From Sphingomonas sp. 67-36 (lineage in GTDB: Bacteria > Pseudomonadota > Alphaproteobacteria > Sphingomonadales > Sphingomonadaceae): 64,000 bases of DNA. Shown here piece by piece: positions 4,408-52,247 of this stretch. Where the stretch lies: assembly GCA_001897375.1 (NCBI GenBank), contig MKSU01000026.1, forward strand, positions 1 through 64,000. The letters are read 5' to 3'. The position numbers and the translations under genes were made by a program. The stretch's first letter is position 1, and the number at the start of each line of letters is the position of its first letter. Under the pieces are notes generated by a model. The model was not told the DNA's origin and did not search any database. It saw only the letters and a list, made by a program, of their open reading frames with translations.

Positions 4408-4440
4408 TTGCGTAGATTATACCGGCATTAATCTACGCAA
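4408..4440. promoter_or_regulatory. palindromic operator candidate, perfect 12-bp arms
   Basis: TTGCGTAGATTA at 4408-4419 is exactly mirrored by TAATCTACGCAA at 4429-4440 around a 9-nt spacer. It lies between the divergent genes 3648-4388 and 4511-5134, 72 nt before the latter. The outer TGCGTA/TACGCA half-sites recur in eight other intergenic regions of the window with a spacer of 18; here it is 19. It is probably the binding site of a dimeric or higher-order regulator. Further TGC-type half-sites follow at 4453 and 4473. Confidence 0.75.
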
Positions 4441-4510
4441 TAATAGAAAGATATGCATTATTCATCGGCAATATGCGTCTAGTTGACGCGAAACGGAGAG
4501 GGAATCGCTC

Positions 4511-5134
4511 TTGTCGAATCTCGAAGCACGCATCGACCGGCTCGAATCGCTCGACCAGATTCGCCAGCTTCCCGCCAAATATGCCCTGGCGCTCGACATG
4601 CGCGACATGGACGCGATGGTCTCGTTGTTCCCGGCGGACGTGCGCGTCGGCAAGGAGGCGAGCGGCCGGGCCGCGTTGCGTGCCTATATGGACCGCACCC
4701 TGCGCTCGCCCTTCACCGGCACGTCGCACCATATCGGCGGCCATGTCATCGAGTTCGACGATGCCGATCATGCGCATGGCGTGGTCTATTCGAAGAACGA
4801 GCATGAGACGGGCGACGAATGGGTCATCATGCAGATGATGTATGTCGACGATTACGTCCGCGCCGAAGGCCGCTGGCATTTCGCGCGGCGGCTGCCGCTC
4901 TACTGGTATGCCACCGATCTCAACAAGCCGCCGGTCGGTGCGAACAAGATGCGCTGGCCGGGGACGGAATGGGTGGAAGGGAATTTCCACAAGCTCTTTC
5001 CGAGCTACGACGAATATTGGGCGCGGGACGGGGATAGCGGCGGCCCGGTCGCCGAGCCAGCGCCGCTGGAGGGATTCCTCAACGCGATGCGCCGGGGGCA
5101 GGCCGCGCCGCGCGTGAAGGTGCGGGCGGATTGA
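4511..5134 (+). CDS. NTF2/SnoaL-like protein, possible steroid dehydratase-type fold
   Basis: This 207-residue protein starts with TTG at 4511, supported by GGAGAGGG at 4495-4502. The N-terminal helix (ARIDRLESLDQIRQL), then KYALALDMRDMDAM and a central SHHIGGHVIEF strand, is the NTF2-like alpha+beta cone layout. It is the same layout as bile acid 7-alpha-dehydratase BaiE and the Hsh2-type dehydratases of sphingomonads. The C-terminal 50 residues form an extra tail. It is the first gene of an operon with a FadH-type ene-reductase and an MBL hydrolase. A lyase or isomerase role on a polycyclic substrate is inference; SnoaL-like proteins are functionally diverse. Confidence 0.7.
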   Translation: MSNLEARIDRLESLDQIRQLPAKYALALDMRDMDAMVSLFPADVRVGKEASGRAALRAYMDRTLRSPFTGTSHHIGGHVIEFDDADHAHGVVYSKNEHETGDEWVIMQMMYVDDYVRAEGRWHFARRLPLYWYATDLNKPPVGANKMRWPGTEWVEGNFHKLFPSYDEYWARDGDSGGPVAEPAPLEGFLNAMRRGQAAPRVKVRAD

Positions 5135-5150
5135 GAGGACAGGAAATACG

Positions 5151-7307
5151 ATGACCACCACGAGATTCCCGCATCTGCTTTCCCCCGGCCGGATCGGGCG
5201 GATGGAGTTGCGCAACCGCATCGCCGTCACCGCGATGGGCGCGAGCCTCGCCGAGCACGACGGCCAGTGCGGCGAGCGCATCATCGCCTATCACGCCGAG
5301 CAGGCGCGCGGCGGCGTCGGCCTCATCATCACCGGCGTGGCGGGAGTGGCATGGCCGGTCGGCGCCAACCAGGAGGGGCAGATCGCGATCTCGGACGATC
5401 GTTTCCTGCCCGGCCTCACGGCGCTGGTCGATGCGGTCCATGCGCATGGCGCGAGGATCGTGCCGCAGCTCCACCACGGCGGCACGGCGGCGATGGAGGA
5501 CCTGCTCGCCGGGCGGCCGATCTGGACGCCTTCGGTGCCCGAGGCGCGGGGCGGGGACTTCACCGCCGCCTTCCTGATCGAGGAGATCATGCGCGCGCCG
5601 TTCGGGCGCATCAAGGGCGTCGAGCTGAAGGTGATGACGGTGGAGGATATCCGCCTCGTCGTCGATCAGTTCGCCGCCGCCGCCGACCGGGCGAAGCGCG
5701 CCGGGTTCGACGGGGTGGAGATCCATGGCGGCCACGGCTATCTCCTGTCCTCCTTCATCTCCCCCAAGACGAACAAGCGCACCGACGATTATGGCGGCCC
5801 GCTGGAAAACCGCGTGCGCTTCCTGCTGGAGGTGATCGCGGCGGTGCGCGCGGCGGTCGGGCCGGACTTCCCGATATGGTGCAAGCTCGATTCGCGCGAG
5901 GTCGGCAAGGAAGGCGGCATCACGATCGAGGATGCGATCGCGACGGCGCGGATGGTCGAGGCCGCCGGGGTCGATGCGATCACCGTCACCGCCTATCACG
6001 ATGTTGGCCAGCCGAAGCTGCACAGCGGCTCGCACACGCCGCACGAGCCGGGGCTGAACATCCCCTTCGCGCGAAAGATCAAGGCGGCGGTGGGCGTGCC
6101 GATCATCGCCTCCGGCCGGATCGAGCCGGAGGTGGGGGATGCGGCGATCGCGGACGGCTCGCTCGATTTCGTGTCGATGGGGCGCAAGCTGCTGGCGGAC
6201 CCGCACCTGCCGAACAAGCTGGCGGCGGGGCGGCCGGAGGACGTGCTGCCCTGCATCTATTGCTACACCTGCATCAGCGCGATCTACGTCTGCGATCCGC
6301 TGCGCTGCGCGGTGAATCCGGAGACGGGGTTCGAATATCTCCGTCGCGAGCCTCCGGCCGCCCCGCCGAAGCGCGTGGTGGTGATCGGCGGCGGCCCGGC
6401 CGGGATGGAATCGGCGCGACGGTTGCGGGTGAAGGGGCAGGAGGTGATCTTGCTGGAGGCCGGTGCGCGGCTCGGCGGCACGTTGCGCTTCGCCTCGCTC
6501 GCCTATCCCGCCAACGAGCGGCTGCTCGACTGGCTTCAGCGGCAGGTGGCGGAATCGGGCGCGGAGGTGCGGCTCAAAACGCCCGCGACGCCCGAATTGC
6601 TGCGCTCGCTGAGGCCGGATGCGGTGATCGTGGCCACCGGCGCGCGGCGCGGGATGCCGCCGATCCCGGGCGGCGACCTGCCCAACGTCCTCTCCGGCGA
6701 CGACATGCGCAAGATGATGCTGGGCGAAAGCTCGGAGGAACTGAAGCGCAAGACCAGCCTCGCCACCCGCCTAGCGACGAAGCTGGGCGCGGCGACCGGC
6801 CTCACCGCCAACCTCGATTTCGTGCGCAAGGCGACGCGCCAGTGGATGCCTTTGGGCGATCATGTCGTGATCGTCGGCGGCGAGCTGGTCGGGCTGGAGC
6901 TGGCCGAGTTCCTGATCGAGCGCGGCCGCACGGTGACGGTGGTGGACGACGCGCCGCGCTTCGGCGCGGGGCTGACGGTGGTGCGGCGGATGCGCCTGCT
7001 CGATGAGTTGCGCGAGCATGACGTCGCGATGTTCCCCTCCGCCTCGGATATCCGCATCGAGCCGGGGTTCGTGTGCTTCAACGACGCGGGCGGCGAGGCG
7101 CGGCGGCCGCGCGCCGATCACGTCATCGTCGCCAAGGGCGCGACCGGCGACGAGGCGCTGGCCGACGCATTGCGCGCCGAGGGCTTCGCGGTCCAGGCGA
7201 TCGGCGATTGCACCGGCGTCTCCTATATCGAGGGCGCGATGCGCGGCGCGGCCGGAGCGGTGGAGGCGATCCTCTCGCCGCAGCCGGCCACGGCGATGGC
7301 GGGGTGA
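5151..7307 (+). CDS. FadH/BaiCD-type NADH:flavin oxidoreductase (ene-reductase) with [4Fe-4S]
   Basis: This 718-residue three-domain enzyme has an N-terminal OYE TIM barrel (about 1-360, with EIHGGHGYLLSSF near 190). Cluster cysteines Cys368-x2-Cys371-x2-Cys374-x11-Cys386 follow, then a FAD domain (VVVIGGGPAGMESA near 405) and an NAD(H) domain (VVIVGGELVGLEL near 575). The architecture is that of 2,4-dienoyl-CoA reductase, trimethylamine dehydrogenase and the bile-acid enzymes BaiCD/BaiH. The x2-x2 cysteine spacing is closer to trimethylamine dehydrogenase than to FadH. It probably reduces a conjugated enone or dienoyl intermediate. It lies 16 nt after the NTF2-like gene. Confidence 0.85.
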   Translation: MTTTRFPHLLSPGRIGRMELRNRIAVTAMGASLAEHDGQCGERIIAYHAEQARGGVGLIITGVAGVAWPVGANQEGQIAISDDRFLPGLTALVDAVHAHGARIVPQLHHGGTAAMEDLLAGRPIWTPSVPEARGGDFTAAFLIEEIMRAPFGRIKGVELKVMTVEDIRLVVDQFAAAADRAKRAGFDGVEIHGGHGYLLSSFISPKTNKRTDDYGGPLENRVRFLLEVIAAVRAAVGPDFPIWCKLDSREVGKEGGITIEDAIATARMVEAAGVDAITVTAYHDVGQPKLHSGSHTPHEPGLNIPFARKIKAAVGVPIIASGRIEPEVGDAAIADGSLDFVSMGRKLLADPHLPNKLAAGRPEDVLPCIYCYTCISAIYVCDPLRCAVNPETGFEYLRREPPAAPPKRVVVIGGGPAGMESARRLRVKGQEVILLEAGARLGGTLRFASLAYPANERLLDWLQRQVAESGAEVRLKTPATPELLRSLRPDAVIVATGARRGMPPIPGGDLPNVLSGDDMRKMMLGESSEELKRKTSLATRLATKLGAATGLTANLDFVRKATRQWMPLGDHVVIVGGELVGLELAEFLIERGRTVTVVDDAPRFGAGLTVVRRMRLLDELREHDVAMFPSASDIRIEPGFVCFNDAGGEARRPRADHVIVAKGATGDEALADALRAEGFAVQAIGDCTGVSYIEGAMRGAAGAVEAILSPQPATAMAG

Positions 7308-8311: not shown

Positions 8312-8317
8312 GGACCG

Positions 8318-9121: not shown

Positions 9122-9131
9122 ATCGATATCC

Positions 9132-10826: not shown

Positions 10827-10844
10827 CCCTTGGCTGTCGATCGG

Positions 10845-11615
10845 TCAGGACGGCAGGTAGAGCTGCGCCGCCTTGCCGCCGTCGACCGGAAGCGCGGTGC
10901 CGGTGATATAGCTCGCCGCGTCGGAGAGCATGAAGATGATCGCCTCCGCCAGCTCGTCCGGCTCGCCGCCGCGCCCCATCGGGATCGCGTCGGCGGTCTT
11001 GGCGGCGGTGTCCGGAGCCTTGGACGCGAAATCCTCGGTGCTCGGCGTCTGCACCTGCCCCGGCACGATCGCGTTGACGCGCACGCCCGAGCGCGCCGCC
11101 TCCATCGCGGCGACGGCGGTGAACTGGATCAGCGCCGCCTTGGACGCGGAATAGCTCGCCATATAAGGCGCGGCGCGGATGCCGCAGGAGGAGGAGATGT
11201 TGACGATCGAGCCGCGCCTCGCCGCCATCATGATCTTCAGCGCCGCCTTGGTGCCGACGAACACCGCGTCCGCATTGACCGCGAAATCCTTGCGCCAGTG
11301 ATCGAGCGTCAGCTTGCCGATCGGCGCGTAATGGACCGACATGGCGTTGTTCACCAGCATGTCGAGCCGGCCATGCCGCGCGGCGACATCCTCGATCACC
11401 CTGGTGAAGGCGGCGTCGTCCGACACATCGAGCTGAACGGCCTCGACCTTGCCGACCTTCGCGATCTCGGCGCGGGCTTCCTCCAGCTTCTCGGGGCGGC
11501 GGGCGCAGATGACGACGGTGGCGCCCCGCTGGGCGAGCAGCCGCGCGGTGGCGCGGCCGATTCCGTCGCTACCCCCGGTGATGATCGCGACGCGCCCGGT
11601 GAAATCCTGGCTCAT
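10845..11615 (-). CDS. SDR family oxidoreductase
   Basis: This 256-residue SDR has TGGSDGIG at 13-20, ARR at 38-40 suggesting NADP(H), Ser142, Tyr155 and Lys159. The active-site Asn motif reads NNAMS instead of NNAG. It is the first gene of the 8318-11615 operon. The start follows a GAGAGGAT ribosome-binding site at 11621-11628. It diverges from the SDR at 11729 across 113 bp holding the operator at 11679-11708. Confidence 0.85.
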   Translation of the reverse strand: MSQDFTGRVAIITGGSDGIGRATARLLAQRGATVVICARRPEKLEEARAEIAKVGKVEAVQLDVSDDAAFTRVIEDVAARHGRLDMLVNNAMSVHYAPIGKLTLDHWRKDFAVNADAVFVGTKAALKIMMAARRGSIVNISSSCGIRAAPYMASYSASKAALIQFTAVAAMEAARSGVRVNAIVPGQVQTPSTEDFASKAPDTAAKTADAIPMGRGGEPDELAEAIIFMLSDAASYITGTALPVDGGKAAQLYLPS

Positions 11616-11678
11616 TGAGGCATCCTCTCGATAAATTTAACGCATTCTGTGGTCATATTTGCGAAATTGTCAACGTTG

Positions 11679-11708
11679 TGCGTAGGTGATAGTGGATTAT
11701 ATTACGAA
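11679..11708. promoter_or_regulatory. TGCGTA-N18-TACGAA operator candidate
   Basis: Half-sites TGCGTA (11679-11684) and TACGAA (11703-11708) span 30 bp, the spacing seen at seven other sites here. It lies in the divergent region between 10845-11615 and 11729-12484, ending 21 nt before the latter start. A binding protein would therefore sit just upstream of its ribosome-binding site. Isolated half-site-like sequences AACGCA (11639) and TTGCGAA (11659) are also present. Confidence 0.6.
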
Positions 11709-11728: not shown

Positions 11729-12484
11729 ATGATGACCGGGAAGGTCGCACTGGTCACGGGCGCCGGGCAAGGCGTTGGTGAAGGCATTGCGCTGGCATTG
11801 GCGAGCGAGGGCGCTGTGGTCGCGGTCACGGGCCGCACGATCGAGAAGCTCGATCGCACCTGCGCGCTGATCGCGGAGCGCGGGGGCGTGGCGATCCCGC
11901 TCGCCTGCGACGTGAAGCAGCCGGCGGATCTCGCACGGATCGTGGAGGAGACGGCCACGCGGCTCGGCGGGATCGACATCCTCGTCAACAATGCGCAGGA
12001 AGTGCCGAACGGCAAGCTGATGGACATAACCGACGAGGCGTTCCTCGCGGGTTTCGAATCCGGCCCGCTCGCCACGCACCGGCTGATGAGGCTGGTCCAT
12101 CCGCATCTGGTGGCGCGCGGGGGAGGGGTGATCATCAACCTCATCTCCTCCGTCACGGTGCGGTGGGACATGGCGGGCTATGGCGCCTATGCGGCGATCA
12201 AGAAAGCGATCCATGCGCTCACCCGCGCGGCGGCGGCGGAATGGGGGCGGCAGGGCATCCGCGCGCTGTCGATCGCGCCGCATGCCGAATCGCCGGGCCT
12301 CAAATGGTGGATGAAGAACAACCCGGAGGAAGCGGAAGCGTTCTTCCGCACCATCCCGCTCGGCCGCGTCGGCCGGCTGGAGGAGGATATCGGCCGCGCC
12401 GTGGTGGCCTTGTGCTCGCCGGACATGGCCTATCTCACCGGGGCGGTGGTGCCGCTCGACGGCGGGCAGGCCAATTTCGGCTGA
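11729..12484 (+). CDS. SDR family oxidoreductase
   Basis: This 251-residue SDR has TGAGQGVG at 10-17, Ser141, Tyr154 and Lys158 (YAAIK). The Asn motif is NNAQ. GRT at 35-37 after beta-2 suggests NADP(H). GGAGAGGAT at 11712-11720 precedes the ATG. The substrate loop carries PGLKWWMKNN, an unusual aromatic-basic patch. It heads the long plus-strand unit ending at 20161 and is 18 nt from the next SDR. The role is inferred as alcohol/ketone redox on the pathway substrate. Confidence 0.85.
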   Translation: MMTGKVALVTGAGQGVGEGIALALASEGAVVAVTGRTIEKLDRTCALIAERGGVAIPLACDVKQPADLARIVEETATRLGGIDILVNNAQEVPNGKLMDITDEAFLAGFESGPLATHRLMRLVHPHLVARGGGVIINLISSVTVRWDMAGYGAYAAIKKAIHALTRAAAAEWGRQGIRALSIAPHAESPGLKWWMKNNPEEAEAFFRTIPLGRVGRLEEDIGRAVVALCSPDMAYLTGAVVPLDGGQANFG

Positions 12485-13408: not shown

Positions 13409-13438
13409 TGCGTAATGTATGAGAATTGATACTACGCA
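13409..13438. promoter_or_regulatory. TGCGTA-N18-TACGCA operator candidate (internal)
   Basis: Both half-sites are exact: TGCGTA at 13409-13414 and TACGCA at 13433-13438, giving the 30-bp span. The site lies 54 nt before the preferred start of the acyl-CoA ligase and 34 nt after the DHRS1-like gene. The ligase/Rieske/amidase block may therefore be an independently controlled unit within the long plus-strand run. Confidence 0.7.
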
Positions 13439-20161: not shown

Positions 20162-20257
20162 GCGAAGGGCGCCCATGGTTCCAAAAAGCGGAAATTGCTT
20201 TTCTCTCAGCGGGTATGGAACGCAACTGAAGCAAAAATACCATAACACGCTTCCATT

Positions 20258-20287
20258 TTCGTAATTCATATTGACATTGATTACGCA
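20258..20287. promoter_or_regulatory. TTCGTA-N18-TACGCA operator candidate over a -35-like TTGACA
   Basis: TTCGTA (20258-20263) and TACGCA (20282-20287) have the common 30-bp span, extended to TTCGTAAT/ATTACGCAA arms. A TTGACA box at 20271-20276 lies between the half-sites, so a bound regulator would probably block or shape RNA polymerase binding at the TonB receptor promoter. No convincing -10 box is seen. The end of the site is 63 nt upstream of the receptor start. Confidence 0.65.
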
Positions 20288-25006: not shown

Positions 25007-25100
25007 GACGGCGTGCGGCGCGACCGCCATCCGCGCCGCCCCGACGACGCTTCGCCGCGCGCCGGCCCCCGACCTTTCGTTTGCGCGGCGAATTGTGCAC

Positions 25101-25128
25101 CGCCGGGCGCGACCGTGGCCGCCCGGCG
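25101..25128. other. GC-rich perfect hairpin
   Basis: CGCCGGGCG (25101-25109) and CGCCCGGCG (25120-25128) can form a 9-bp stem with a 10-nt loop in the 195-bp gap between the MFS and AsnC genes. No T-run follows on the plus strand, so it is not a standard intrinsic terminator. It may be an RNA structure in the leader of the regulator pair, or chance in GC-rich DNA. Confidence 0.35.
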
Positions 25129-25201
25129 CTTGACCGGCGCGATGCTTGACCCGAAACACCGGAAGGCCGCAGGAGACGGCAATGGCTTGGAAAGGGGATT
25201 G

Positions 25202-25681
25202 ATGGCGAATTCGGTCGCGATCGATGACGTCGATCGCAATATCGTTGAGCTGCTGCGTGAAAACGGGCGCTGCACCAACCAGCAGATCGCCGACAGCCTC
25301 GGGCTGACCGCCGCGACCGTCTCCTCGCGGATCCGGCGGATGGAGGAGGCGAACCTCCTGCGAGTCGTCGCGGTCTCCGATTTCGCGGCGCACGGCTATA
25401 ACCTGCTGATGGAGGTCGCGATCGAGGTGGACGGCCGCCCCGCCTCCGATGTCGCCGCCGAGCTGGCCGAATTCCCCGAAGTGTTCGCCGCGCATCTCGT
25501 CTCCGGGCGCTACGACATCGACATCCTCGTCGCGTTGCGCGAGTTCGACGACCTGCCGCATCTGCTGCTGGAAAAATTCTCGCAGATCAGCGGCATCCGT
25601 TCGATGGTGCCCGCGATCGCAGTCGACGTGGTGAAATACCAGTTCGACGTTGCCCCCATCGAGGAGCGCGTGTCACGATGA
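25202..25681 (+). CDS. AsnC/Lrp family regulator (first of pair A)
   Basis: This 159-residue protein has an N-terminal helix-turn-helix (DDVDRNIVELLRENGRCTN, then IADSLGLTAATVSSRIRRM, about 8-50) and a C-terminal RAM effector domain (about 65-150). It would bind DNA as a dimer or octamer. The start at 25202 follows GGAAAGGGG. It overlaps the next AsnC gene by ATGA, so the two are made together. It resembles the first member of the other tandem pair (44671) in LLRVVAVSDF and in the C-terminal KY...APIE segment. The ligand is unknown. Confidence 0.88.
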   Translation: MANSVAIDDVDRNIVELLRENGRCTNQQIADSLGLTAATVSSRIRRMEEANLLRVVAVSDFAAHGYNLLMEVAIEVDGRPASDVAAELAEFPEVFAAHLVSGRYDIDILVALREFDDLPHLLLEKFSQISGIRSMVPAIAVDVVKYQFDVAPIEERVSR

Positions 25682-26178
25682 CCCTGCCCCAGTTGGATGA
25701 CCTCGATCGCAAGCTGATCGACCTGCTGTCGCGCGACGCCCGCGTCAGCAACCGCAAGATCGCCGCCGATCTCGGCGTGACCGAAGGCACCGTGCGCGGC
25801 CGGATCAAACGGTTGCAGCAGGACAATCTGATCGCCTTCACCGCGATCACCAGCTTCGATCTGGTAGAGACCACCAAGCTCGCCTTCATCGCCATTCAGG
25901 CCGATGTGATGAACGTGCGCGAGATCGCGCGGAACATCGCCGACCTGCCGCAGGTGAGCAGCGTGATGATCGTGATGGGGCGGTTCAACGTCCTCGCCAT
26001 CTGCCTCTTCAGCGAGCTGGACCGGCTGTACGAGGTGGCGTCCGACCTGATCCTCAGCATGCCCGGCGTCCACCATGTCGAAACCTCGATCGCGGTGCGC
26101 ACGGTGAAATATGATCCGCGCATCGTGCGCATCACCAATGGCGCCCCGGTGGGAGAGCTTTCCCTGCCTGATGCGTAG
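25678..26178 (+). CDS. AsnC/Lrp family regulator (second of pair A)
   Basis: This 166-residue regulator has an N-terminal helix-turn-helix (DARVSNRKIAADLGVTEGT, about 20-38) and a C-terminal RAM domain (about 75-155). ATGA overlap with the preceding gene implies coupled synthesis, perhaps a hetero-oligomer. The DARVSN-x-LTEGT pattern is shared with the second member of pair B (45171), not with its own neighbour. The operator at 26172-26201 overlaps its stop codon and controls the next promoter, so this pair is a candidate regulator of the shared motif. Confidence 0.88.
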   Translation: MTLPQLDDLDRKLIDLLSRDARVSNRKIAADLGVTEGTVRGRIKRLQQDNLIAFTAITSFDLVETTKLAFIAIQADVMNVREIARNIADLPQVSSVMIVMGRFNVLAICLFSELDRLYEVASDLILSMPGVHHVETSIAVRTVKYDPRIVRITNGAPVGELSLPDA

Positions 26179-26201
26179 GCATGATCTGATCGCATTACGC
26201 A
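26172..26201. promoter_or_regulatory. TGCGTA-N18-TACGCA operator candidate overlapping an asnC stop codon
   Basis: Both half-sites are exact: TGCGTA 26172-26177 and TACGCA 26196-26201. The left half contains part of the TAG stop (26176-26178) of the second AsnC gene, and the right half lies in the 129-bp gap before the Rieske gene at 26308. It is the clearest physical link between the motif and the AsnC pair. Confidence 0.7.
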
Positions 26202-26307: not shown

Positions 26308-27387
26308 ATGGCTACCACGGCCGAATACCGCCTCGGCGAGTTCACGTTCCCGCGAGGCTGGTTCATGGTTGCGACGTCGGAGGAAGTCACCGGCGTGCCG
26401 GCGGGCGTCCGCTATTTCGGCGAGGACTGGGTGCTGTATCGCGGCCAGTCCGGCCGGGCCTATATGGTCGAGGCCTATTGCCCGCACATGGGCACGCATC
26501 TGGCGAACAACCACACCAGCTATATCGTCAAGGACAAGGAACACGTCGAAGGCGAATCGATCCGCTGCCCCTATCACGGCTGGCGCTTCGGGCCGGACGG
26601 CAAGTGCGATGAGATTCCCTATTCTCCCGCGGCGATTCCCAAGGCGGCCTGCCTCAAGTCGTGGAAGCTGGTGGAGCGCGCCGGTTGCATCTGGACGTGG
26701 TATGATCCCGAAGGCGGCGAGCCGGATTACGATCTGCCCGCGTTCGAGAATTACGGGGCGCCGGGCTGGGTGAACTGGAACGTGCGGGCGCTGGGCGAGC
26801 TGGCTTCGCACCCGCAGGAGATCGTCGACAACATGGCGGACAAGGCGCACCTCGGCCCGGTCCACGGCTCGATCGACATGGTGCTGTTCGAGAACGAGTT
26901 CGACGGCGTCACCTGCCGCCAGATCCTCACCGCCGGGCACAAGACGCTGGCGGGCGACGGCAGCGAGCCGATGACCAACGATACCTGGTACGCCGGCCCC
27001 GGCATCCTGCAATCGGTGATGATCGGCGAATATCCCTCGCACATGCTGATCGCCCACACGCCGGTCGACGATGGCGTGGTGAAGGTGTGGTACGGCCTGC
27101 TGGTGAAGGCGCCGAACGACGTGCCGACCGAGGCGGATCGCGCGGTTGCCGCCGGCTATGAGCAGGCGGGGGTCGACGCCTTCGCGCAGGATTTCGAGAT
27201 CTGGGGCAACAAGCGCGCCTGCATCCACCCGATGATGGTGCAGGGCGACGGCCCGTTCCACAAGGTCCGCATCTGGTACAAGCAATTCTACAATCCGCGT
27301 GAGCGGGCAGGCGAGTTCCAGAGCCGTGTCAACGGCCGGATGGTCACGAAGGGCACGCAGCAGGATCCGTGGACGGAGGCCGCATAG
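26308..27387 (+). CDS. Rieske non-heme iron oxygenase with lengthened Rieske loop
   Basis: This 359-residue oxygenase has ligands Cys58-x-His60 and Cys87-x2-His90. The 26 residues between His60 and Cys87 are about nine more than the usual 15-17, because of an inserted [17 protein letters not shown]-like loop. The iron site is in [13 protein letters not shown] (Asp178, His181, His186). It is related to KshA/VanA-type single-subunit oxygenases but distinct from the one at 17580. AGGAGAGGG precedes the start. No reductase or ferredoxin gene lies nearby. It has its own operator and is followed by an OYE. Confidence 0.87.
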
Positions 27388-27430: not shown

Positions 27431-28507
27431 ATGGACGTGCTGTTCGAGCCGGTGACGCTGGGCGCTCTCCATCTGGAGAACCGCATCGTCATGGCGCCGA
27501 TGACGCGCGATCGCGCCGGGCCGGACGACGTGCCCGGCGATATCATGGTGGAATATTATCGCCAGCGCGCTACCGCCGGATTGATCGTGACGGAGGGCGT
27601 CCAGCCCAGCGCGGCGGGCAAGGGCTATTGGCGGACGCCCGGCATTTACAGCGATGCGCAGATCGAAGGCTGGCGGCGCGTCGCCGATGCGGTTCATGCC
27701 GAGGGCGGTCGCATCGTGATGCAGATCATGCATTGCGGGCGCGTTGTGGTGGCGGCCAATCGCGGCTTCGCGGCGGACGTGATCGCACCCTCCGCCATCC
27801 CATGCCCCGCTCCCGTGCCGGGGCCGGATGGCGTTCCGGTCGCGACCGACATGCCGCGCGCGCTCGACGCGGCGGAGCTTCCGGCGATTGCCGCGGAGTT
27901 CGCGCAGGCCGCGCGCAATGCCCGCCATGCGGGGATGGACGGCGTGGAGCTGCATTGCGCAAGCGGCTATCTCATCAACCAGTTCCTCAATCCCGCGAGC
28001 AACCTTCGCACCGACGAATGGGGGGGCAGTGCCGGGAATCGCGCGCGTTTCCCGGTGGCGGTGCTGGCGGCGATGGCGGACGCGATCGGCGGCGACCGGG
28101 TGGGCTTCCGCATCTCGCCGGGCAATCCCTATAACGGCATGGATCCGGCCGATCCGGCGGAGACGTTCATTCCCTTCCTCCGCGCGGTGGACGGACTGGG
28201 GCTGGCCTATGCCCATGTCGTGGACATGAACCTGCCCGATCTCGATACGCTGGCGATGGTGCGCGCGCATTGGTCCGGCGCGATCATCGCCAACAATATG
28301 CTGAAGGCCGAAAGCGCGCGTGAACTGATCGCGGCGGGGCGGGCGCAGGGCATATCGTTCGGCCGCGCCTTCATCGCCAATCCCGATCTGGTGGCGCGCA
28401 TCCGTGCCGGCGCGGCGCTGGCGAAGCCGGATTATGCCTTGCTCTATACCGGGGAAGCGGCGGGATATATCGACTATCCCGCTATGGCGGCAGGGCCGGT
28501 TTCGTGA
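27431..28507 (+). CDS. Old Yellow Enzyme family NADH:flavin oxidoreductase with altered active site
   Basis: This 358-residue FMN TIM-barrel ene-reductase starts [23 protein letters not shown] and carries [17 protein letters not shown]. The carbonyl-binding pair, normally His-x-x-Asn or His-x-x-His, is His175-Cys-Ala-Ser178 here. The downstream catalytic Tyr (Tyr180) is retained, and TDEYGG reads TDEWGG. It probably reduces an activated C=C bond, but the changed pair may alter the substrate or activity. It lies 43 nt after the Rieske gene, in the same unit. Confidence 0.85.
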
Positions 28508-28532
28508 GAAGCGCGGCCTTCCTGCGGCCGAT

Positions 28533-28550
28533 TTCCTCCAAACGGAGGAA
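28533..28550. other. short perfect hairpin between OYE and ribB
   Basis: TTCCTCC (28533-28539), loop AAAC, GGAGGAA (28544-28550) form a tight 7-bp stem in the 76-nt gap. There is no U-run, so it may stabilise or punctuate the mRNA rather than terminate it. I do not see the conserved elements of an FMN riboswitch. Confidence 0.45.
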
Positions 28551-28583
28551 GCGGCGCGGCCCGAACCGGGCGATGCGTTCATC

Positions 28584-29714
28584 ATGAAACCGGACGCCCA
28601 GCTCAGCCGTATCCGCCACGCGTTCCTGTCCTCGCCCGAGGAGATCATCGAGGAGGCGAAGAACGGGCGCATGTTCATCCTCGTCGACGACGAGGATCGC
28701 GAGAACGAGGGCGATCTGGTGATCCCGGCGCAGATGGCGACGCCGGAGAAGATCAACTTCATGGCGCGGCACGGGCGCGGGCTGATCTGCCTTGCGCTGG
28801 GCAAGGCGCGGGTCGACCAGCTTGGCCTCGACCTGATGAGCCGCAACAACGGCACGCGGCACGAGACCGCCTTCACCGTCTCGATCGAGGCGCGCGAGGG
28901 GGTGACCACCGGCATCTCGGCGGCGGACCGCGCGCGCACCGTGGCGGTGGCGATCGACGCGTCGAAGGGGCGCGAGGAGATCGTGACGCCGGGCCATGTC
29001 TTCCCGCTGGTCGCGCGCGACGGCGGCGTGCTGGTCCGCGCGGGGCATACCGAGGCGGCGGTGGACGTGGCGCGGCTCGCCGGCCTCAACCCCTCCGGCG
29101 TGATCTGCGAGATCATGAACGAGGACGGCACGATGGCGCGGATGGACGACCTCGTCGCCTTCGCCCAGCTCCACAACCTCAGGATCGGCACGATCCGCGA
29201 CCTCATCGCCTATCGCCGTCGCCATGACCATCTGGTCGAATGCGTGGCGGAGACGCGCCTGACCAGCACTTTCGGCGGCGACTGGATCGCCAGGACCTAT
29301 TTCAACAAGGTCGAGGGCACCGAGAACCTGGTGCTGATCAAGGGCCGGATCACGCCCGATCGGCCGACATTGGTGCGGATGCACGCCTTTTCGGTGTTCA
29401 GCGACATGCTCGCCGAGGTCGGCGACCGCGCGACGTTGCTGCACCGCGCGATGGCGGCGATCGGCGAGGCGGGGGCAGGGGTGATCGTGGTGCTCAACCC
29501 GGTCCGCAACGATTATCTGCGCAACCAGATGCGCTCGCATGCCGGGGCGCAGCCGCCGGCCGAGGAATTGCGCGATTACGGTATCGGCGCGCAGATTCTC
29601 GCCGATCTCGGCGTGCAGGAGATGATCCTGCTGACCGGATCGCACCGCAACATCATCGGGATCGAAGGCTATGGCCTGAACGTGGTCGAGGAGCGCCCGA
29701 TCCCGGCTGAGTGA
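28584..29714 (+). CDS. ribB: 3,4-dihydroxy-2-butanone-4-phosphate synthase with degenerate GTP cyclohydrolase II domain (RibBX type)
   Basis: This 376-residue protein has an intact N-terminal DHBP synthase domain ([14 protein letters not shown] near 32, HRGL-equivalent region, [12 protein letters not shown] near 112, HVFPLVAR and GHTEAAVD). Its C-terminal half keeps the GCH II fold but has lost the zinc cysteines and the RGHEGRG motif ([17 protein letters not shown] and LNPVRND in their places). It should make the riboflavin precursor from ribulose 5-phosphate but not open GTP. It is placed among many FAD/FMN enzymes and may boost flavin supply. Start 28584 is chosen by domain position; the ribosome-binding site is weak. 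Confidence 0.85.
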
Positions 29715-31081: not shown

Positions 31082-31915
31082 TCAAGCGGGGATTTTGAGA
31101 CCATTGCCGCTGACCATCGGCACGACCGTCCACTGGCCGTCGGGCGTGCGCGTCCAGCCGGCGGCGGCGAGCGCGCCGCCGTCGACATGGATCGTCGTCC
31201 CCGTCACCCAGCTTGCCAGCGGGCTGGCGAGATAGAGCGCCGCGCCCGCGATATCCTCCGGCTTGCCGAAGCGCCCGAGCGGAATCCACTTGTCCATGTG
31301 CGCGCGGTTCTCGGGCGGGATCATGTAATCCAGCGCGACCTGCGGCGTGTCGGTCGTCTCGGGCGCGATGTCGTTGATGCGGATGCCGGCCGGGGCCAGC
31401 TCGAGCGCGAGGCATTTGGTGAGGCCGGTGACGGCTGCCTTGCACGCGCCATAGACGGCGCAATTGGGGATGCCGCGAAACGCCTCGATCGAGGTGACGC
31501 TGACGATGCTCGATCCGGGCGCCGCGGCGCGCAGCAGCGGCAGCATCGCGCGGGTGACGCGCATGACCTGCCCGAAATTGATCTCGACGATCGCCGCCAC
31601 CTGATCGTCGCTCATCGCGTCGAAGGGCGCGGCGTGGAGGAAATCGCCGACATTGTTGACCAGCACGTCGAGCCTGCCGAACCGTTCGCGTATCCGGTCG
31701 GCCAGTGCCGCGACATCGGCGCTGTCGGTCACGTCGCAACGGATCGCCAATGCGGCCGGGTGGCGGGCGGCGAAATCCGCGCGCAGCTCCTCACTTACCT
31801 CGGCAATGACGACCGAAGCCCCGGCGGCGGCGAATGCCTCCGCGCAGGCGCGGCCGATCCCGCGCCCGCCCCCGGTGACGAGCACGACCTTGCCGGAAAA
31901 ATCGAGCATATCCAT
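31082..31915 (-). CDS. SDR family oxidoreductase
   Basis: This 277-residue SDR has TGGGRGIG at 14-21, Ser142, Tyr155 and Lys159 (YGACK). The Asn motif is NNVG, and there is an extra 25-residue C-terminal tail after VDGG. GGAGAGGAT lies upstream. It heads the minus operon and diverges from the SDR at 32093 across 177 bp holding the operator at 31986-32015. It is probably a hydroxy/oxo redox enzyme of the same pathway. Confidence 0.85.
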   Translation of the reverse strand: MDMLDFSGKVVLVTGGGRGIGRACAEAFAAAGASVVIAEVSEELRADFAARHPAALAIRCDVTDSADVAALADRIRERFGRLDVLVNNVGDFLHAAPFDAMSDDQVAAIVEINFGQVMRVTRAMLPLLRAAAPGSSIVSVTSIEAFRGIPNCAVYGACKAAVTGLTKCLALELAPAGIRINDIAPETTDTPQVALDYMIPPENRAHMDKWIPLGRFGKPEDIAGAALYLASPLASWVTGTTIHVDGGALAAAGWTRTPDGQWTVVPMVSGNGLKIPA

Positions 31916-31985
31916 ATCGGTCGATCCTCTCCGATCGCTTTATATTCACGCAATTGACGTGTTACTAATGCATATGTCAATGTAT

Positions 31986-32015
31986 AGCGTAAAATTTGAT
32001 CGTATATATTACGAA
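31986..32015. promoter_or_regulatory. AGCGTA-N18-TACGAA operator candidate
   Basis: AGCGTA (31986-31991) and TACGAA (32010-32015) keep the 30-bp span with one mismatch in each half. The AT-rich 177-bp divergent region between two SDR genes also has CACGCAA near 31947, a possible extra half-site for the minus-strand unit. The site is 78 nt before the 32093 start. Confidence 0.55.
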
Positions 32016-32092: not shown

Positions 32093-32860
32093 ATGACGCC
32101 CAGACTCAACCTGCCGGCCACCGGCGTGATCGTCACCGGCGGCGCATCGGGGATCGGGCTTGCCTCGGCCCGCGCGCTTGCTGGTGTCGGACGCCCGGTC
32201 GCGCTGTGGGATATTGCCGGCGAGAAGGCGCGGGAAGCGGCCGAGGCTATTGCGCGGGAGACGGGCGTGAATGCGATCGGCCTTGGCGTCGATATGCGCG
32301 ATCTCGACGCCTATGACGCGGCGATCGCGCAGAGCCGCGCGGAAATGGGCACGATCGGCGGGTTCGTCCATGCCGCCGGGATCGTCGATATCGGCTCGAT
32401 CGACGGGATGACCCCGGAAAGCTGGGAAGCGGGGATCAACACGCACCTGCGCCCGCTCGCCTTCCTCGCGCAGAAGCTCCAGCCCGATCTCGCCGCCAAC
32501 AAGGGCTCGGCGATCGTCGCCATCGCCTCGATCAACGCGACGCTGGGCAATGCGGTCAACCCGATCTACAGCGCGGCGAAGGGCGGAATGCTGTCATTGG
32601 TCCGCTCGCTCGCGGACCGGCTGGCGCGCGACGGCGTGCGGGTCAACGCGGTGTCGCCGGGCCAGATATTGACGCCGATGATGAAGCCGGCGGTCGACAA
32701 TCTGCCCGGGTTCTTCGAGAAGCGCATCCTGCTCGAACGGCTCGGCGCGCCGGAGGAAGTCGGCAGCGTCGTGCGCTTCCTGCTGTCGGACGAGGCGAGC
32801 TACGTCACCGCCGCCGAACTGGTGGTGGACGGGGGCAATATCTCGTCGCAGCGGGTTTAA
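32093..32860 (+). CDS. SDR family oxidoreductase
   Basis: This 255-residue SDR has TGGASGIG at 15-22, Asp40, Ser146, Tyr159 and Lys163 (YSAAK). The Asn motif is HAAG rather than NNAG. AAGGGAGAG precedes the start. It is the first gene of the plus unit that continues with a luciferase-like monooxygenase. The ordering SDR then flavin monooxygenase could give ketone then oxygen-insertion chemistry, but that is inference. Confidence 0.85.
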   Translation: MTPRLNLPATGVIVTGGASGIGLASARALAGVGRPVALWDIAGEKAREAAEAIARETGVNAIGLGVDMRDLDAYDAAIAQSRAEMGTIGGFVHAAGIVDIGSIDGMTPESWEAGINTHLRPLAFLAQKLQPDLAANKGSAIVAIASINATLGNAVNPIYSAAKGGMLSLVRSLADRLARDGVRVNAVSPGQILTPMMKPAVDNLPGFFEKRILLERLGAPEEVGSVVRFLLSDEASYVTAAELVVDGGNISSQRV

Positions 32861-42015: not shown

Positions 42016-42269
42016 CAGGCGACTGCCTCTCCGTTCATCATGGCACGTATTGCGGTAGCGCCATCGTGGACGGGAAAAATCATCCAGTTGGACTAGTGCG
42101 GTCCATTTTTCGCGCTTTTTTGAGCGCACTCCAATGAGTATGGTGCGATATGTTTTGGATTTGCGTATAAATGATGCTGTAATTATACGCATTCATTCTG
42201 AGACATAAATCGGCCCGATAGACCGTTCTGCCACAAACCGTTCGCCGCCATCCCGGAATAGGAGAAACC
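42016..42269. other. AT-rich divergent control region upstream of ketosteroid isomerase
   Basis: Together with the leader ORF this forms the largest gap without a firm gene (388 bp, 41882-42269). The half near the isomerase is AT-rich and holds the operator at 42162-42191. Promoters for both the minus VOC/FMN-reductase unit and the plus isomerase unit must be here, but I cannot place clear -35/-10 boxes. No RNA gene is visible. Confidence 0.5.
42162..42191. promoter_or_regulatory. TGCGTA-N18-TACGCA operator candidate with 9-bp arms
   Basis: TGCGTATAA (42162-42170) mirrors TTATACGCA (42183-42191) exactly. Both outer half-sites are exact and the span is 30 bp. It lies 78 nt before the ketosteroid isomerase start, in a divergent region. 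With the site at 4408 it is the best-preserved copy of the motif. Confidence 0.75.
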
Positions 42270-44670: not shown

Positions 44671-45174
44671 TTGCGACCAGAAGGCAAGGGGGATCGGCGC
44701 GGACGCGGCCGGAAACCGGCCGAATATGATACCGACGAGATGGACGAGCGGATCATCGCCGCGCTGCGCCAGAACGGGCGGATCGCCAATCGCGATCTTG
44801 CCCGCGATCTGGGGGTGAACGAGGCGACCGTCCGCACCCGCCTGCGCCGGCTGGAGGATGCGGACATGCTGCGCGTCGTCGCGATGCGCGATCTGTCGGC
44901 GATGGGCTTCGAATATCTCGCGCCGGTGGGTGTGCAGGTGAAGGGCCGCTCGGCGGCGGCGGTGGGGGAGGACCTCGCGCGGATCGAGCGCGTCATCACC
45001 GTCAACGTCGCGATCGGCACCCACGATCTGGAAATCCAGGTGGTCGCCACCAGCCTTTCGGAGATGCAGGAGCTGTTGACGGAGGTGATCGCCAAGGTCG
45101 ACGGCGTAGCGCGGCTGTTCCCCAGCCTTGCGCTCAAGGTGCTCAAATACAATCCGGAATGGGCGCCCCTATGA
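44671..45174 (+). CDS. AsnC/Lrp family regulator (first of pair B)
   Basis: This 167-residue regulator starts with TTG at 44671 (GGAG 7 nt upstream). A basic N-terminal tail (about 1-18) precedes the helix-turn-helix (RIANRDLARDLGVNEATVRTRLRRL region, about 37-62) and a RAM domain. LRVVAMRDLSAMGF and the C-terminal KYNPEWAPL resemble the first member of pair A (25202). Its stop overlaps the next AsnC gene as ATGA. It may share the isomerase promoter, since it follows the SDR by 67 nt. Confidence 0.86.
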   Translation: MRPEGKGDRRGRGRKPAEYDTDEMDERIIAALRQNGRIANRDLARDLGVNEATVRTRLRRLEDADMLRVVAMRDLSAMGFEYLAPVGVQVKGRSAAAVGEDLARIERVITVNVAIGTHDLEIQVVATSLSEMQELLTEVIAKVDGVARLFPSLALKVLKYNPEWAPL

Positions 45175-45638
45175 CCCGCATCGCGCTTGACGAACTGGAC
45201 GAGCGGATCATCGAGCGGCTGGGCCACGACGCGCGCGTCTCCAACCGCGAGATCGGGCGCGAGTTCGGCCTGACCGAAGGCACGATCCGCGCCCGCGTGA
45301 AGCGGCTGCTCGACAACAAGGTGATCCGCGTCGCGGCGGTCACCAACGCCAACCGGCTGCGCAATCCGATCCTCGCCTATCTGTGGGTGGAGGCGGACAG
45401 CGCCCCGGATATCGAGCGTGTCGCGCAGGCGCTGGGCGCGCTTCCCGAGATTACCTTCGTCGCGATGATCCTCGGCCGGGCCGACGTGCTGGCGATGACA
45501 TTGGTCGAGAATGGCGCGGAGCTGACCGATTTCCTCCACCAGACGGTGGACAAGATCCCCGGCGTCCACCGCGTGCGCTACAGCCTCGGCCAGAATTTCA
45601 TCAAGCACGACTATCGCTGGTGTTCGCTGGTCGATTGA
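45171..45638 (+). CDS. AsnC/Lrp family regulator (second of pair B)
   Basis: This 155-residue regulator has the helix-turn-helix DARVSNREIGREFGLTEGT (about 20-38) and a RAM domain ending with HRVRYSLGQNF. Start 45171 gives the ATGA overlap; an ATG four codons earlier is possible. It matches the second member of pair A in DARVSN/LTEGT and in order, so the pair appears to have been copied as a unit. It converges on the NTF2-like gene at 45645. Confidence 0.86.
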   Translation: MTRIALDELDERIIERLGHDARVSNREIGREFGLTEGTIRARVKRLLDNKVIRVAAVTNANRLRNPILAYLWVEADSAPDIERVAQALGALPEITFVAMILGRADVLAMTLVENGAELTDFLHQTVDKIPGVHRVRYSLGQNFIKHDYRWCSLVD

Positions 45639-48430: not shown

Positions 48431-48434
48431 CGGC

Positions 48435-49223: not shown

Positions 49224-49268
49224 GTCACTCTCCTGCCATTGTCGTTGTTGTTGCGATGGGCCGCGATA

Positions 49269-49298
49269 TGCGTTTTATTACGGCTTAACAATTGCGCA
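49269..49298. promoter_or_regulatory. TGCGTT-N18-TGCGCA operator candidate
   Basis: TGCGTT (49269-49274) and TGCGCA (49293-49298) keep the 30-bp span with one mismatch per half. It lies between divergent SDR genes, 63 nt before the 49362 start. An internal ATTACGG (49278-49284) adds a partial half-site. Confidence 0.5.
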
Positions 49299-49361
49299 TT
49301 TCGATGTATCTTTCCACGAATATCCTCGTCATGCAAGGTGATCGGGTTGAAGGAGAGCGAA

Positions 49362-50138: not shown

Positions 50139-50160
50139 CCGCGCCCGCCCACGCGCCCGC

Positions 50161-51072: not shown

Positions 51073-51115
51073 TCTCCGTTGGTCAGCGGGCTTGAGGGGA
51101 GCATAAAGGGCCGGG

Positions 51116-52204
51116 ATGGCAAAATCTGATCAAGGCGCATTCTCCGATCTGCTTTCGGCGCTCTATGGGGGGCTGCTGGAAATGGCGCCGTGGGAGCGTT
51201 TCCTGCGCGAATTCGCGGCATGGCTCGATGCGACCTACGCCACGCTGATCCTGACCGCGCCGGGCATGACGACGCCGGGCGCGATCCTGACGCCGGGCGC
51301 GCCCGCCGAGCGCAGCGAGGAATATGCCGAGAGCTTCTTCGCGAGCGATCCGTTCACGGGCCTGCCCGAAGGCAAGGTGACGGCCTTCGCCGAATTCCTC
51401 GGCGGCGAGATGGCGCGCGACAGCGATTTCTATCGCGACTTCCTCGCGGCGGCGGGGGGCGACCAGATCCTCGGCGTCGATCTTCGCTTCGACAGCGGGT
51501 TCGAGGCGCGGTTGCGCGCGACCCGCGATCGCAGCCGCCCCGATTTCGGCCAGGTCGAGCGCGCGGCATTTCAGGCGATCGTCCCACACTTGCGCCACGC
51601 GATCGGTCTTTTCGAGCGGTTGCAGGTCTCCGGCGCGGAACAGGGCGTCTATCGCGGCACGGTGGAGCAGATGGGGGTCGCCGCGATCATCCTCAATCGC
51701 GACGGCCGGGTGGTGCGGACCAATGCGGTGGCGGACCGGCTGCTGGCGGCGGGGGATGGGCTTGCGGTCGCCGATTGCCGGTTGCGGCTCAAGGATGCGG
51801 CGCAGCGCAAGGGGCTGGACGCGCTGCTGAGATCGCTCGACGCCAATCCCGCACCGCAGCGTTTCCGCATCACACGCGCCTCGGGCCGCGACCTTGCCGC
51901 GATCGCCAAGCCGATCGCCGCGCCCGCCTTCATGCGCGGTGGTGCGGCGCTCGCCCTGTTCGTCAGCGATCCGGGGCATGAGGCGCAGTTCGATCCCGAA
52001 GCCATCCGCGACCTGTTCCAGCTCACCCGCATGGAGGCGAACCTCGCGGTGGCGCTGGCCAGCGGGCGCTCGCTGGTCGATGCGGCGGACGCGCTGGGCA
52101 TCGCGCACAATACCGCGCGGTCGCACCTGCGCTCGATCTTCGCCAAGACGGGCGCGCGCCGCCAATCGCAGCTCGTTCACCTGCTGCACGGCGGAGTCCA
52201 ATAG
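51116..52204 (+). CDS. LuxR-type helix-turn-helix regulator with N-terminal sensor
   Basis: This 362-residue protein has a C-terminal LuxR-like helix-turn-helix (about 295-355: FQLTRMEANLAVALASGRSL and LGIAHNTARSHLRSIFAKT). The N-terminal region shows a PAS-like segment (IILNRDGRVVRTNAVADRLL, near 195). The testosterone-responsive activator TeiR of Comamonas is of the same general type. A steroid-sensing role is inference. It sits next to an esterase and a sulfotransferase and could control either. No membrane segment is seen. Confidence 0.82.
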   Translation: MAKSDQGAFSDLLSALYGGLLEMAPWERFLREFAAWLDATYATLILTAPGMTTPGAILTPGAPAERSEEYAESFFASDPFTGLPEGKVTAFAEFLGGEMARDSDFYRDFLAAAGGDQILGVDLRFDSGFEARLRATRDRSRPDFGQVERAAFQAIVPHLRHAIGLFERLQVSGAEQGVYRGTVEQMGVAAIILNRDGRVVRTNAVADRLLAAGDGLAVADCRLRLKDAAQRKGLDALLRSLDANPAPQRFRITRASGRDLAAIAKPIAAPAFMRGGAALALFVSDPGHEAQFDPEAIRDLFQLTRMEANLAVALASGRSLVDAADALGIAHNTARSHLRSIFAKTGARRQSQLVHLLHGGVQ

Positions 52205-52217
52205 AGTTGCATGTTCT

Positions 52218-52247
52218 TGCGCTGTTGATAACGTGTATTGATACGAA
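52218..52247. promoter_or_regulatory. TGCGCT-N18-TACGAA operator candidate
   Basis: TGCGCT (52218-52223) and TACGAA (52242-52247) have the 30-bp span with a mismatch in each half. It is 50 nt before the GTG start of the sulfotransferase-like gene. A separate inverted repeat GAATATC/GATATTC (52245-52272) overlaps its right half. Confidence 0.45.

What the first reader, a model, noticed from the sequence alone, without database searches (positions are those of the whole stretch)
4408..52247. A shared 30-bp operator TGCGTA-N18-TACGCA marks a candidate local regulon
Read directly: TGCGTA-like and TACGCA-like half-sites separated by exactly 18 bp occur at 11679, 13409, 20258, 26172, 31986, 42162, 49269 and 52218. 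A 12-bp-arm perfect palindrome at 4408 has a 19-bp spacer. All are intergenic or at a stop codon, 20-110 nt before a start. They control SDRs, a CoA ligase, a TonB receptor, a Rieske oxygenase, ketosteroid isomerase and a sulfotransferase. Half-sites about 24 bp centre to centre are unusual for a simple dimer. I do not recognise this operator from known steroid regulators such as KstR.
Basis: partly seen in the sequence, partly recalled or inferred. Interest (0 to 1): 0.87.

Follow-up and report, generated by a model that had tools for sequence, protein, structure and literature searches.

The report
Paired Lrp steroid-catabolism operator
A shared DNA switch in front of steroid-degradation genes is real, recurs in many related bacteria, and is most likely read by a pair of Lrp/AsnC-family regulators encoded beside it, which gives a testable answer to how these bacteria control steroid breakdown.

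Summary
TGCGTA-N18-TACGCA occurs where stated. With at most one mismatch the 4.0-Mb genome has six sites: five here, one before an hsaA/hsaD/hsaE-like operon elsewhere. In 75 loci around relatives of LrpB, spacer 18 gives 144 sites against a mean of 1.6 for other spacers.

A solo lrpB paralogue has the operator just upstream in 4 of 4 genomes fetched. In the one clade whose LrpB has Asn instead of Thr35, arms shifted towards TGCGGA.

Two features were missed: a third half-site, CGCA, 63-64 bp from the like-oriented arm, at 6 of 9 window sites; and ~10.5-bp A/T periodicity around the operator. Both suggest Lrp-style wrapping.

Best reading: LrpA-LrpB oligomers wrap these promoters and control steroid catabolism, likeliest by repression that a pathway intermediate lifts; direction and ligand are inferred. 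My searches found no such operator in print.

The parts
4409..4439 (.). operator variant TGCGTA-N19-TACGCA (12-bp perfect arms from 4408 to 4440) between SDR 3648-4388(-) and SnoaL-like 4511-5134(+)
   Evidence: 15.7 bits; the SDR_3648 homologue of G296 (L183) has an exact N18 operator in the same place
4474..4477 (.). third half-site TGCG, mirror position (+65, i.e. +64 after the extra base)
11679..11708 (.). operator, divergent SDR 10845-11615(-) / SDR 11729-12484(+)
11641..11644 (.). third half-site CGCA at -38
13409..13438 (.). operator (exact) before CoA ligase (start 13489 by Shine-Dalgarno)
20258..20287 (.). operator enclosing TTGACA, before TonB receptor, MFS, lrpA, lrpB (probable operon)
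20221..20224 (.). third half-site CGCA at -37
25202..25681 (+). lrpA, Lrp/AsnC regulator (longest ORF 25013-25681; homologues start at about codon 64)
   Evidence: Pfam HTH_AsnC-type, AsnC_trans_reg; alignments
25678..26178 (+). lrpB, Lrp/AsnC regulator, overlaps lrpA by 4 bp; proposed reader of the arms (Thr35)
26172..26201 (.). operator (exact) overlapping the lrpB stop, before kshA-like Rieske oxygenase 26308-27387
31986..32015 (.). operator, divergent SDR 31082-31915(-) / SDR 32093-32860(+)
31949..31952 (.). third half-site CGCA at -37
42162..42191 (.). operator (exact) before ketosteroid isomerase-like 42270, thiolase, SDR, lrpA2, lrpB2 (probable operon)
42125..42128 (.). third half-site CGCA at -37
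44671..45174 (+). lrpA2, second Lrp/AsnC pair, first gene
45159..45638 (+). lrpB2, second Lrp/AsnC pair, second gene
49269..49298 (.). operator (2 mismatches) before SDR (start 49362)
   Evidence: 29.2 bits though not in training
52218..52247 (.). weak operator (3 mismatches) before sulfotransferase (start 52298)
   Evidence: 19.9 bits though not in training
52281..52284 (.). third half-site TGCG, mirror position +63

Best explanation
The sites are the operators of one steroid-catabolism regulon, read by Lrp/AsnC regulators encoded as a coupled pair inside the cluster (LrpA-LrpB; the second pair LrpA2-LrpB2 probably reads the same sequence). LrpB contacts the TGCGTA arms. Because the arms are 24 bp apart, farther than one Lrp-type dimer is known to span, at least two dimers (homo- or heteromeric with LrpA) bind each operator; a third half-site six helical turns from one arm and ~10.5-bp-phased A/T tracts let the promoter DNA wrap around a larger oligomer. 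The wrapped complex most likely shuts the promoters, and a steroid-pathway intermediate bound by the C-terminal domains opens them. Both pairs appear to end operons headed by an operator (20258 and 42162), so they would regulate themselves. Shown by sequence: the operator, its exact spacing, its conservation, its link to steroid genes, the third half-site and the periodicity. Supported but inferred: binding by LrpB/LrpA. Inferred only: wrapping, repression, ligand.
For: Spacing: N18 144 against mean 1.63 (max 12) for other spacers 0-60 in 75 lrpB loci; exact 33 against max 1; 5 non-orthologous loci (61 kb) 0. 72 of 75 loci hold a site above 20 bits; the maximum in 25 shuffled loci is 17.1. Regulon logic: the only near-exact site outside the window precedes genes with Acyl-CoA_dh_2, alpha/beta-hydrolase and FAA_hydrolase domains, as hsaA, hsaD and hsaE would have. 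Regulator: LrpB matches 8 of 9 comparison clusters at 65-74%, LrpA 7 of 9 at 63-80%. In the G218 stretch (55 kb, 8 sites) 21 ORFs of 90 aa or more have no window homologue; 20 were scanned with Pfam and none is a regulator, five having no match at all. Over 298 family genomes an exact site is present in 29 of 35 with LrpB1 or LrpB2 and 7 of 263 without; two or more in 19 of 35 against 0 of 263; the reversed control pattern shows no such link, 5 of 35 against 27 of 263, and two or more in 1 of 35 against 7 of 263 (my tallies). Solo lrpB paralogues with the operator about 84-103 nt upstream: 4 of 4 genomes of genus g62 fetched, spacers diverged, arms kept. Specificity: arm position 5 is G in 28 of 46 arms in the 8 loci whose LrpB has Asn35 (6 of the 8 have sites) and in 16 of 328 in the 67 others; 35 is the only helix-turn-helix position of LrpB that separates the groups perfectly, and none does in LrpA. 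Higher order: third half-site in 57 of 149 non-redundant sites, in 8 upstream and 8 downstream of 49 strictly dissimilar ones where control offsets reach at most 4; in the same 49 the ~10.5-bp periodicity exceeds all 2000 jittered sets in the near flanks.
Against: No binding, expression or ligand data exist. Genome co-occurrence would hold for any gene of the cluster, and no phylogenetic correction was made. Counts per genome at one mismatch are not by themselves above the reversed control in several genomes (for example G261 6 against 9, G107 6 against 12); what stands out is clustering. The Asn35 change is a single clade (8 rows, support 99/89), so it is one event, and L151 in it has G in only 2 of 8 arms. 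Three of the 75 loci have no site above 20 bits (L133, L155, L160), and 6 of 35 genomes with the regulators lack an exact site, 4 of them among the 10 with LrpB2 only. The 24-bp arm spacing does not match Lrp dimer sites of 13-17 bp or a two- or three-turn spacing (PMC2995911, section 5). Promoter geometry is ambiguous: TTGACA lies inside the operator at TonB promoters (8 of 8 such sites), but beside it at divergent SDR promoters, where activation is also possible.
Confidence: 0.78

Rival explanations
1. The same Lrp pair binds the operators but works mainly as an activator (or a dual regulator) that needs a steroid ligand, not as a repressor.
For: At divergent SDR promoters a TTGACA-like box on the opposite strand lies 6-11 bp beside the operator in 8 of 149 sites, 7 of them before SDR_11729 homologues; by my estimate that puts the operator near -60 of the divergent gene. 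Lrp-family members can be either (PMC2995911, passages).
Against: At TonB promoters TTGACA lies inside the operator (8 of 149, all 8 TonB), where binding should block polymerase.
Confidence: 0.3
2. Another regulator, encoded in or outside the clusters (for example the LuxR-type protein 51116-52204 or an unlinked TetR protein), reads the operator, and the Lrp pair is a bystander.
For: LuxR-type TeiR/TesR control steroid genes in Comamonas (PMC8399759, PMC12239570, passages); the LuxR gene abuts the site at 52218. An unlinked regulator was not searched for.
Against: LuxR homologues were found in 3 of 9 comparison clusters (several only partly fetched); at solo lrpB loci the operator stands before lrpB itself, with no other match to window proteins in 2 of 4; the operator shift tracks LrpB residue 35; the apparent wrapping suits Lrp proteins.
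Confidence: 0.1
3. LrpA and LrpB are independent homo-oligomers with different sites; LrpB alone makes the operator complex and LrpA acts elsewhere or as a co-sensor.
For: Solo lrpB paralogues keep the same arms and spacing; arm specificity tracks LrpB only.
Against: lrpA lies next to lrpB in 71 of 75 loci and overlaps it by 4 bp in 43, which suggests a joint complex; its helix-turn-helix is conserved as well. The four genomes with solo copies also hold an LrpB1 homologue elsewhere.
Confidence: 0.25
4. The motif is a chance or low-complexity feature of A/T-rich intergenic DNA.
For: At three mismatches the raw pattern count is not above shuffled expectation.
Against: Spacer test, genome-wide concentration, and 2 of 65 sites inside gene interiors against 45.9 expected.
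Confidence: 0.01

Closest known systems
Lrp/AsnC (feast/famine) regulators such as FL11 (PH1519), Ss-LrpB, E. coli Lrp
   Same: domain make-up, closest solved relatives by sequence, A/T-rich inner operator, half-sites in helical phase, signs of wrapping (compare PMC2995911, section 5)
   Different: arms 24 bp apart instead of one 13-17 bp dimer site; adjacent paralogue pair; steroid genes; a specific, conserved operator, where natural Lrp sites are described as quite degenerate
Two contiguous Lrp/AsnC genes NCHOL11_RS15865/RS15860 of Sphingobium sp. Chol11
   Same: locus L157 (record Novosphingobium sp. Chol11) encodes LrpA and LrpB relatives at 60 and 61%; that these are the two locus tags is an inference. 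PMC12882949 (passages) reports the genes in the bile-salt cluster
   Different: the passages give no operator or target for them; here an operator variant with TNCGGA arms is found in that locus
EdcR (TetR family) of Caenibius tardaugens
   Same: regulates a steroid cluster in a sphingomonad; palindromic operator
   Different: its operator TnnCnnTACnAnTnGTAnnGnnA (PMC8700777, passages) is a different sequence and spacing; other protein family
KstR/KstR2 and TeiR/TesR/HsdR
   Same: regulate steroid catabolism in other bacteria
   Different: KstR homologues are reported absent from bile-acid-degrading Proteobacteria (PMC8399759, passages); no TetR match among the 66 window ORFs scanned

Membership tests
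Lrp/AsnC regulators (the proteins LrpA, LrpB) | N-terminal AsnC-type helix-turn-helix plus C-terminal AsnC_trans_reg (RAM) domain | tested here: met
   Pfam E 1.4e-13 and 1.7e-11 (LrpA), 3.1e-14 and 6.1e-12 (LrpB)
Lrp/AsnC regulators (the proteins LrpA, LrpB) | oligomerises to octamers or similar | not testable with these tools
   needs purified protein
canonical Lrp dimer site | 13-17 bp imperfect inverted repeat with A/T-rich centre (PMC2995911, section 5) | tested here: not met
   arms 24 bp apart in a 30-bp operator; inner positions are A/T-rich, the dyad itself is not
canonical Lrp multi-site region | sites in helical register, two or three turns apart | tested here: inconclusive
   arms 2.3-2.5 turns apart; third half-site 63-64 bp (6.0 turns) from the like-oriented arm; ~10.5-bp A/T periodicity
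TetR-type steroid repressors (KstR, EdcR) | TetR protein encoded with the cluster | tested here: not met
   no TetR match among 66 window ORFs scanned; unlinked TetR genes not searched
LuxR-type steroid regulators (TeiR, TesR) | LuxR protein present wherever the operator occurs | tested here: inconclusive
   homologues in 3 of 9 comparison clusters, several only partly fetched; rest of those genomes not searched

The most novel reading that the evidence does not exclude
An LrpA-LrpB heteromer forms a nucleosome-like wrapped switch, laid out by a bipartite 24-bp-spaced operator plus a third half-site, that senses steroid catabolites and governs steroid and bile-salt breakdown across Alphaproteobacteria; LrpB Thr35 sets one base of arm specificity and has been retuned once in a Sphingobium-centred clade together with its operators.
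Probability: 0.45. Interest if true: 0.82.

Novelty: new variant of a known kind. Interest (0 to 1): 0.72.

Why it matters
[quoted passage not shown] This gives a named regulator pair, an operator precise enough to find regulon members genome-wide (it found an hsaA-like operon on another contig), a predicted specificity residue and a predicted DNA architecture, each testable by ordinary bench work. A steroid-responsive Lrp pair would also be a candidate biosensor part and would extend a family known mainly for amino-acid sensing.

Tried and rejected
Rejected: chance (spacer, genome-wide and intergenic tests). Set aside as main regulator: LuxR 51116 (patchy) and AraC (no match among the ORFs scanned). 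Considered and not kept: each arm as its own dimer site (TNCGNA is only partly palindromic, own reading); an intact second operator 63 bp upstream (only a weak T at the expected left arm, counts of 4-6 at -62 to -64), so I speak of a third half-site only. Not resolved: activator or repressor; positional k-mers gave no clear -10 box. TGCG at +87/+88 reaches 15 of 149 and 11 of the 15 are kshA promoters: unexplained. The profile search of the own genome is less sensitive than the pattern: it missed the C15 site, 49269 and 52218. The pattern (up to three mismatches) has background: 66 of 273 genomes without LrpB1 had a match by my tally, so I rely on the exact pattern, with its reversed control (42 control matches against 73, by my count). 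The third half-site was first noticed by eye and then tested on the same sites, with controls; it and the periodicity are exploratory. The periodicity is not confined cleanly: one distant downstream stretch (80-150) still gave P 0.0007 and one far upstream stretch (-125 to -60) gave 0.21. For one search, L168 and L169 were left out as duplicates of G050 and G118; three further probable duplicates (L125, L127, L129) were left to the redundancy filter. L155 and L160 were left out of the column comparison because no clear operators were seen there.
Full report
OBSERVATION. A loose pattern with three mismatches is not above chance in the window (16 against 19.6 in shuffled sequence), so the claim rests on tighter tests. 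With at most one mismatch the window has five N18 pairs, one each at spacers 19, 26, 37 and 40, and none at the other spacers from 0 to 40. A matrix from six sites ranks all eight N18 sites first to eighth in the window; 49269 (29.2 bits) and 52218 (19.9) were not in the training set, and each of the six trained sites, left out in turn, still ranks within the first eight; the next places are 4461 (18.1) and 4409 (15.7). In the whole genome (4.0 Mb, 32 contigs) at most one mismatch finds six sites, five of them here; the reversed control finds three, places not listed. The sixth, C15:145385, lies 52 nt before an ORF with an Acyl-CoA_dh_2 domain, followed by an alpha/beta hydrolase and an FAA hydrolase. 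From established knowledge of the 9,10-seco pathway these look like hsaA, hsaD and hsaE; the motif thus found a further probable steroid operon on another contig.

RELATED CLUSTERS. Pattern searches of 298 genomes of the same family found clustered sites in other genera. Raw counts at one mismatch are not always above the reversed control (G261 6 against 9, G107 6 against 12), but the sites lie together. Stretches of nine of these genomes were fetched. Homologues of the window's KstD, KshA, SDR, CoA-ligase, amidohydrolase and TonB proteins lie among the sites in most of them. In ten clusters including the window, 2 of 65 sites fall inside gene interiors where 45.9 were expected.

THE REGULATOR. 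The window's only regulators with homologues in nearly all clusters are LrpA and LrpB: LrpB in 8 of 9 at 65-74%, LrpA in 7 of 9 at 63-80%. The ninth, G139, was fetched only in part and has the second type of pair. In the G218 stretch, 21 ORFs of 90 aa or more lack a window homologue; 20 were scanned, 15 match enzyme or other non-regulator families and 5 match nothing. A search of named genomes with an LrpB alignment found 125 relatives and kept 80 loci, 75 of them at 49% identity or more (the other 5 at 29-37%); they include Sphingobium sp. Chol11, Sphingobium estronivorans AXB, Croceicoccus estronivorus and Chakrabartia. In these 75 loci (1.31 Mb) spacer 18 gives 144 sites with at most one mismatch, the 60 other spacers a mean of 1.63 and a maximum of 12; exact sites 33 against at most 1; the five other loci none. 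63 of 75 loci hold such a site and 72 of 75 a matrix site above 20 bits, maximum in 25 shuffled loci 17.1. lrpA adjoins lrpB in 71 of 75, with the 4-bp overlap in 43.

CO-OCCURRENCE. LrpB1 (E<=1e-45) is in 25 of 298 genomes, LrpB2 (E<=1e-30) in 18, together 35 by my tally. Exact sites are in 36 genomes: 29 of the 35 and 7 of the 263 others. By type: LrpB1 only 15 of 17, both 8 of 8, LrpB2 only 6 of 10. Two or more exact sites occur in 19 genomes, all among the 35. The reversed control pattern occurs in 32 genomes, 5 of the 35 and 27 of the 263, two or more in 1 and 7 (counted). The 29 belong to 19 genera by my count. Genomes are not independent, and any gene of the cluster would co-occur, so this supports the regulon more than the protein. 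Two results bear on the protein itself. In genus g62 a second, solo lrpB-like gene has one operator about 84-103 nt upstream in 4 of 4 genomes fetched, with different spacers and conserved arms; two of the four loci show no other match to window proteins, one an FMO match at 29% and one a short TonB match. And six genomes with LrpB2 but no LrpB1 at 1e-45 have exact sites, among them G296 and G139, where the LrpA2-LrpB2 pair was read.

SPECIFICITY. Chol11 and some relatives seemed to lack the operator; a matrix scan showed arms TNCGGA with the same N18 spacer. Eight loci have LrpB with Asn at residue 35 (GVNEGTVRG) instead of Thr. With arm position 5 made neutral, sites above 20 bits have G there in 28 of 46 arms in these loci (six of the eight have such sites; per locus 2 of 8 in L151 to 6 of 6 in L156) and in 16 of 328 in the 67 others. 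In the helix-turn-helix, 35 is the only LrpB position that separates the six loci from the rest perfectly; no LrpA helix-turn-helix position does, since Sphingobium estronivorans AXB keeps the common LrpA sequence TAATVS there. Outside the helix-turn-helix other positions also separate them (LrpB 3, 5, 94, 108; LrpA 110, 123, 141, 150). The Asn35 rows are one clade (99/89), so this is one event: suggestive, not statistical. In the FL11 complex the loop before the recognition helix and the helix itself contact DNA (PMC2995911, section 5).

ARCHITECTURE. The extended consensus is aTWTGCGTAAW-N14-WTTACGCAWAt, with least information at the dyad. In listed promoters a further CGCA stood upstream. 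Counted over 149 non-redundant sites, CGCA at -37/-38 occurs in 41 and the mirror TGCG at +63/+64 in 19, either in 57; other offset pairs average 2.5 and 2.3 with maxima 8 and 15, the 15 being mostly kshA promoters. In 49 strictly dissimilar sites the counts are 8 and 8, control maxima 4. In the window 6 of 9 sites have it (chance about 4e-8), or 5 of the 8 N18 sites (about 9e-7), the ninth being counted with one base of shift. The distance from the third half-site to the like-oriented arm is 63-64 bp, six turns. A/T content oscillates with a best period of 10.5-10.75 bp in phase with the operator; jittering sites by up to 12 bp destroys it. In the 49 strict sites none of 2000 jittered sets reaches it out to about 65 bp beyond either arm; farther out P is 0.032 upstream and 0.0085 downstream. 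Such phasing is what a DNA-wrapping protein would select for; Lrp-family proteins wrap DNA, about 100 bp for Ss-LrpB.

DIRECTION. Starts with a Shine-Dalgarno lie 20-106 nt from the eight N18 operators. TTGACA sits at a fixed place inside the operator in 8 of 149 sites, all TonB promoters, which suggests repression; a reverse-strand TTGACA lies beside it in another 8, 7 of them SDR_11729 promoters, which would allow activation of the divergent gene. I put repression at about 0.55-0.6.

BEYOND SPHINGOMONADS. L167 (uncultured proteobacterium, LrpB 49%) has an operator between lrpA and a divergent acetaldehyde dehydrogenase/aldolase pair and one before an hsaA-like gene followed by a kshA-like gene; L166 (Rhodospirillaceae MAG, 50%) has two sites.

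PRINT. PMC12882949 (passages) notes the two contiguous Lrp/AsnC genes in Chol11 without an operator. PMC8399759 (passages) calls regulation in bile-acid-degrading Proteobacteria largely unknown. EdcR's operator differs (PMC8700777, passages). PMC12239570 and PMC8707732 were seen in passages; PMC12175502 was searched for regulator terms without a relevant passage. My searches cover only open-licence papers and found no report of this operator.

Noticed in passing
window 57161-59412 (-): Histidine-specific methyltransferase next to an FGE-sulfatase/DinB_2 protein, the arrangement of ergothioneine genes egtD and egtB (family names, pathway from general knowledge).
   Followed up: no
window 59487-62898 (-): LigD (polymerase, ligase and phosphoesterase domains) beside Ku: a bacterial non-homologous end-joining pair at the edge of the steroid cluster.
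   Followed up: no
window 28404-29714 (+): A RibBA-like riboflavin-synthesis fusion lies inside the steroid cluster, perhaps to supply flavin to its monooxygenases; a homologue was found in 1 of 9 comparison clusters.
   Followed up: partly
window 54338-57157 (+): A 939-residue protein with a flavin monooxygenase domain only in its second half (from about residue 445); the first 440 residues have no Pfam match at 1e-5.
   Followed up: no
L177 9696, L178 9275, L179 2690, L180 9985: Solo lrpB paralogues of genus g62 with an operator in front; the function of this second locus is unknown.
   Followed up: partly
L160 and L155 (whole loci): LrpA-LrpB pairs of the Asn35 clade with no matrix hit above 12 bits within the fetched DNA.
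   Followed up: no
kshA promoters of related loci, +87/+88 from the operator start: A further TGCG recurs at this offset, 11 of its 15 occurrences before kshA homologues; unexplained.
   Followed up: partly
window 4389-4510: Besides the N19 palindrome this intergenic region holds a weak second matrix hit at 4461 (18.1 bits).
   Followed up: no
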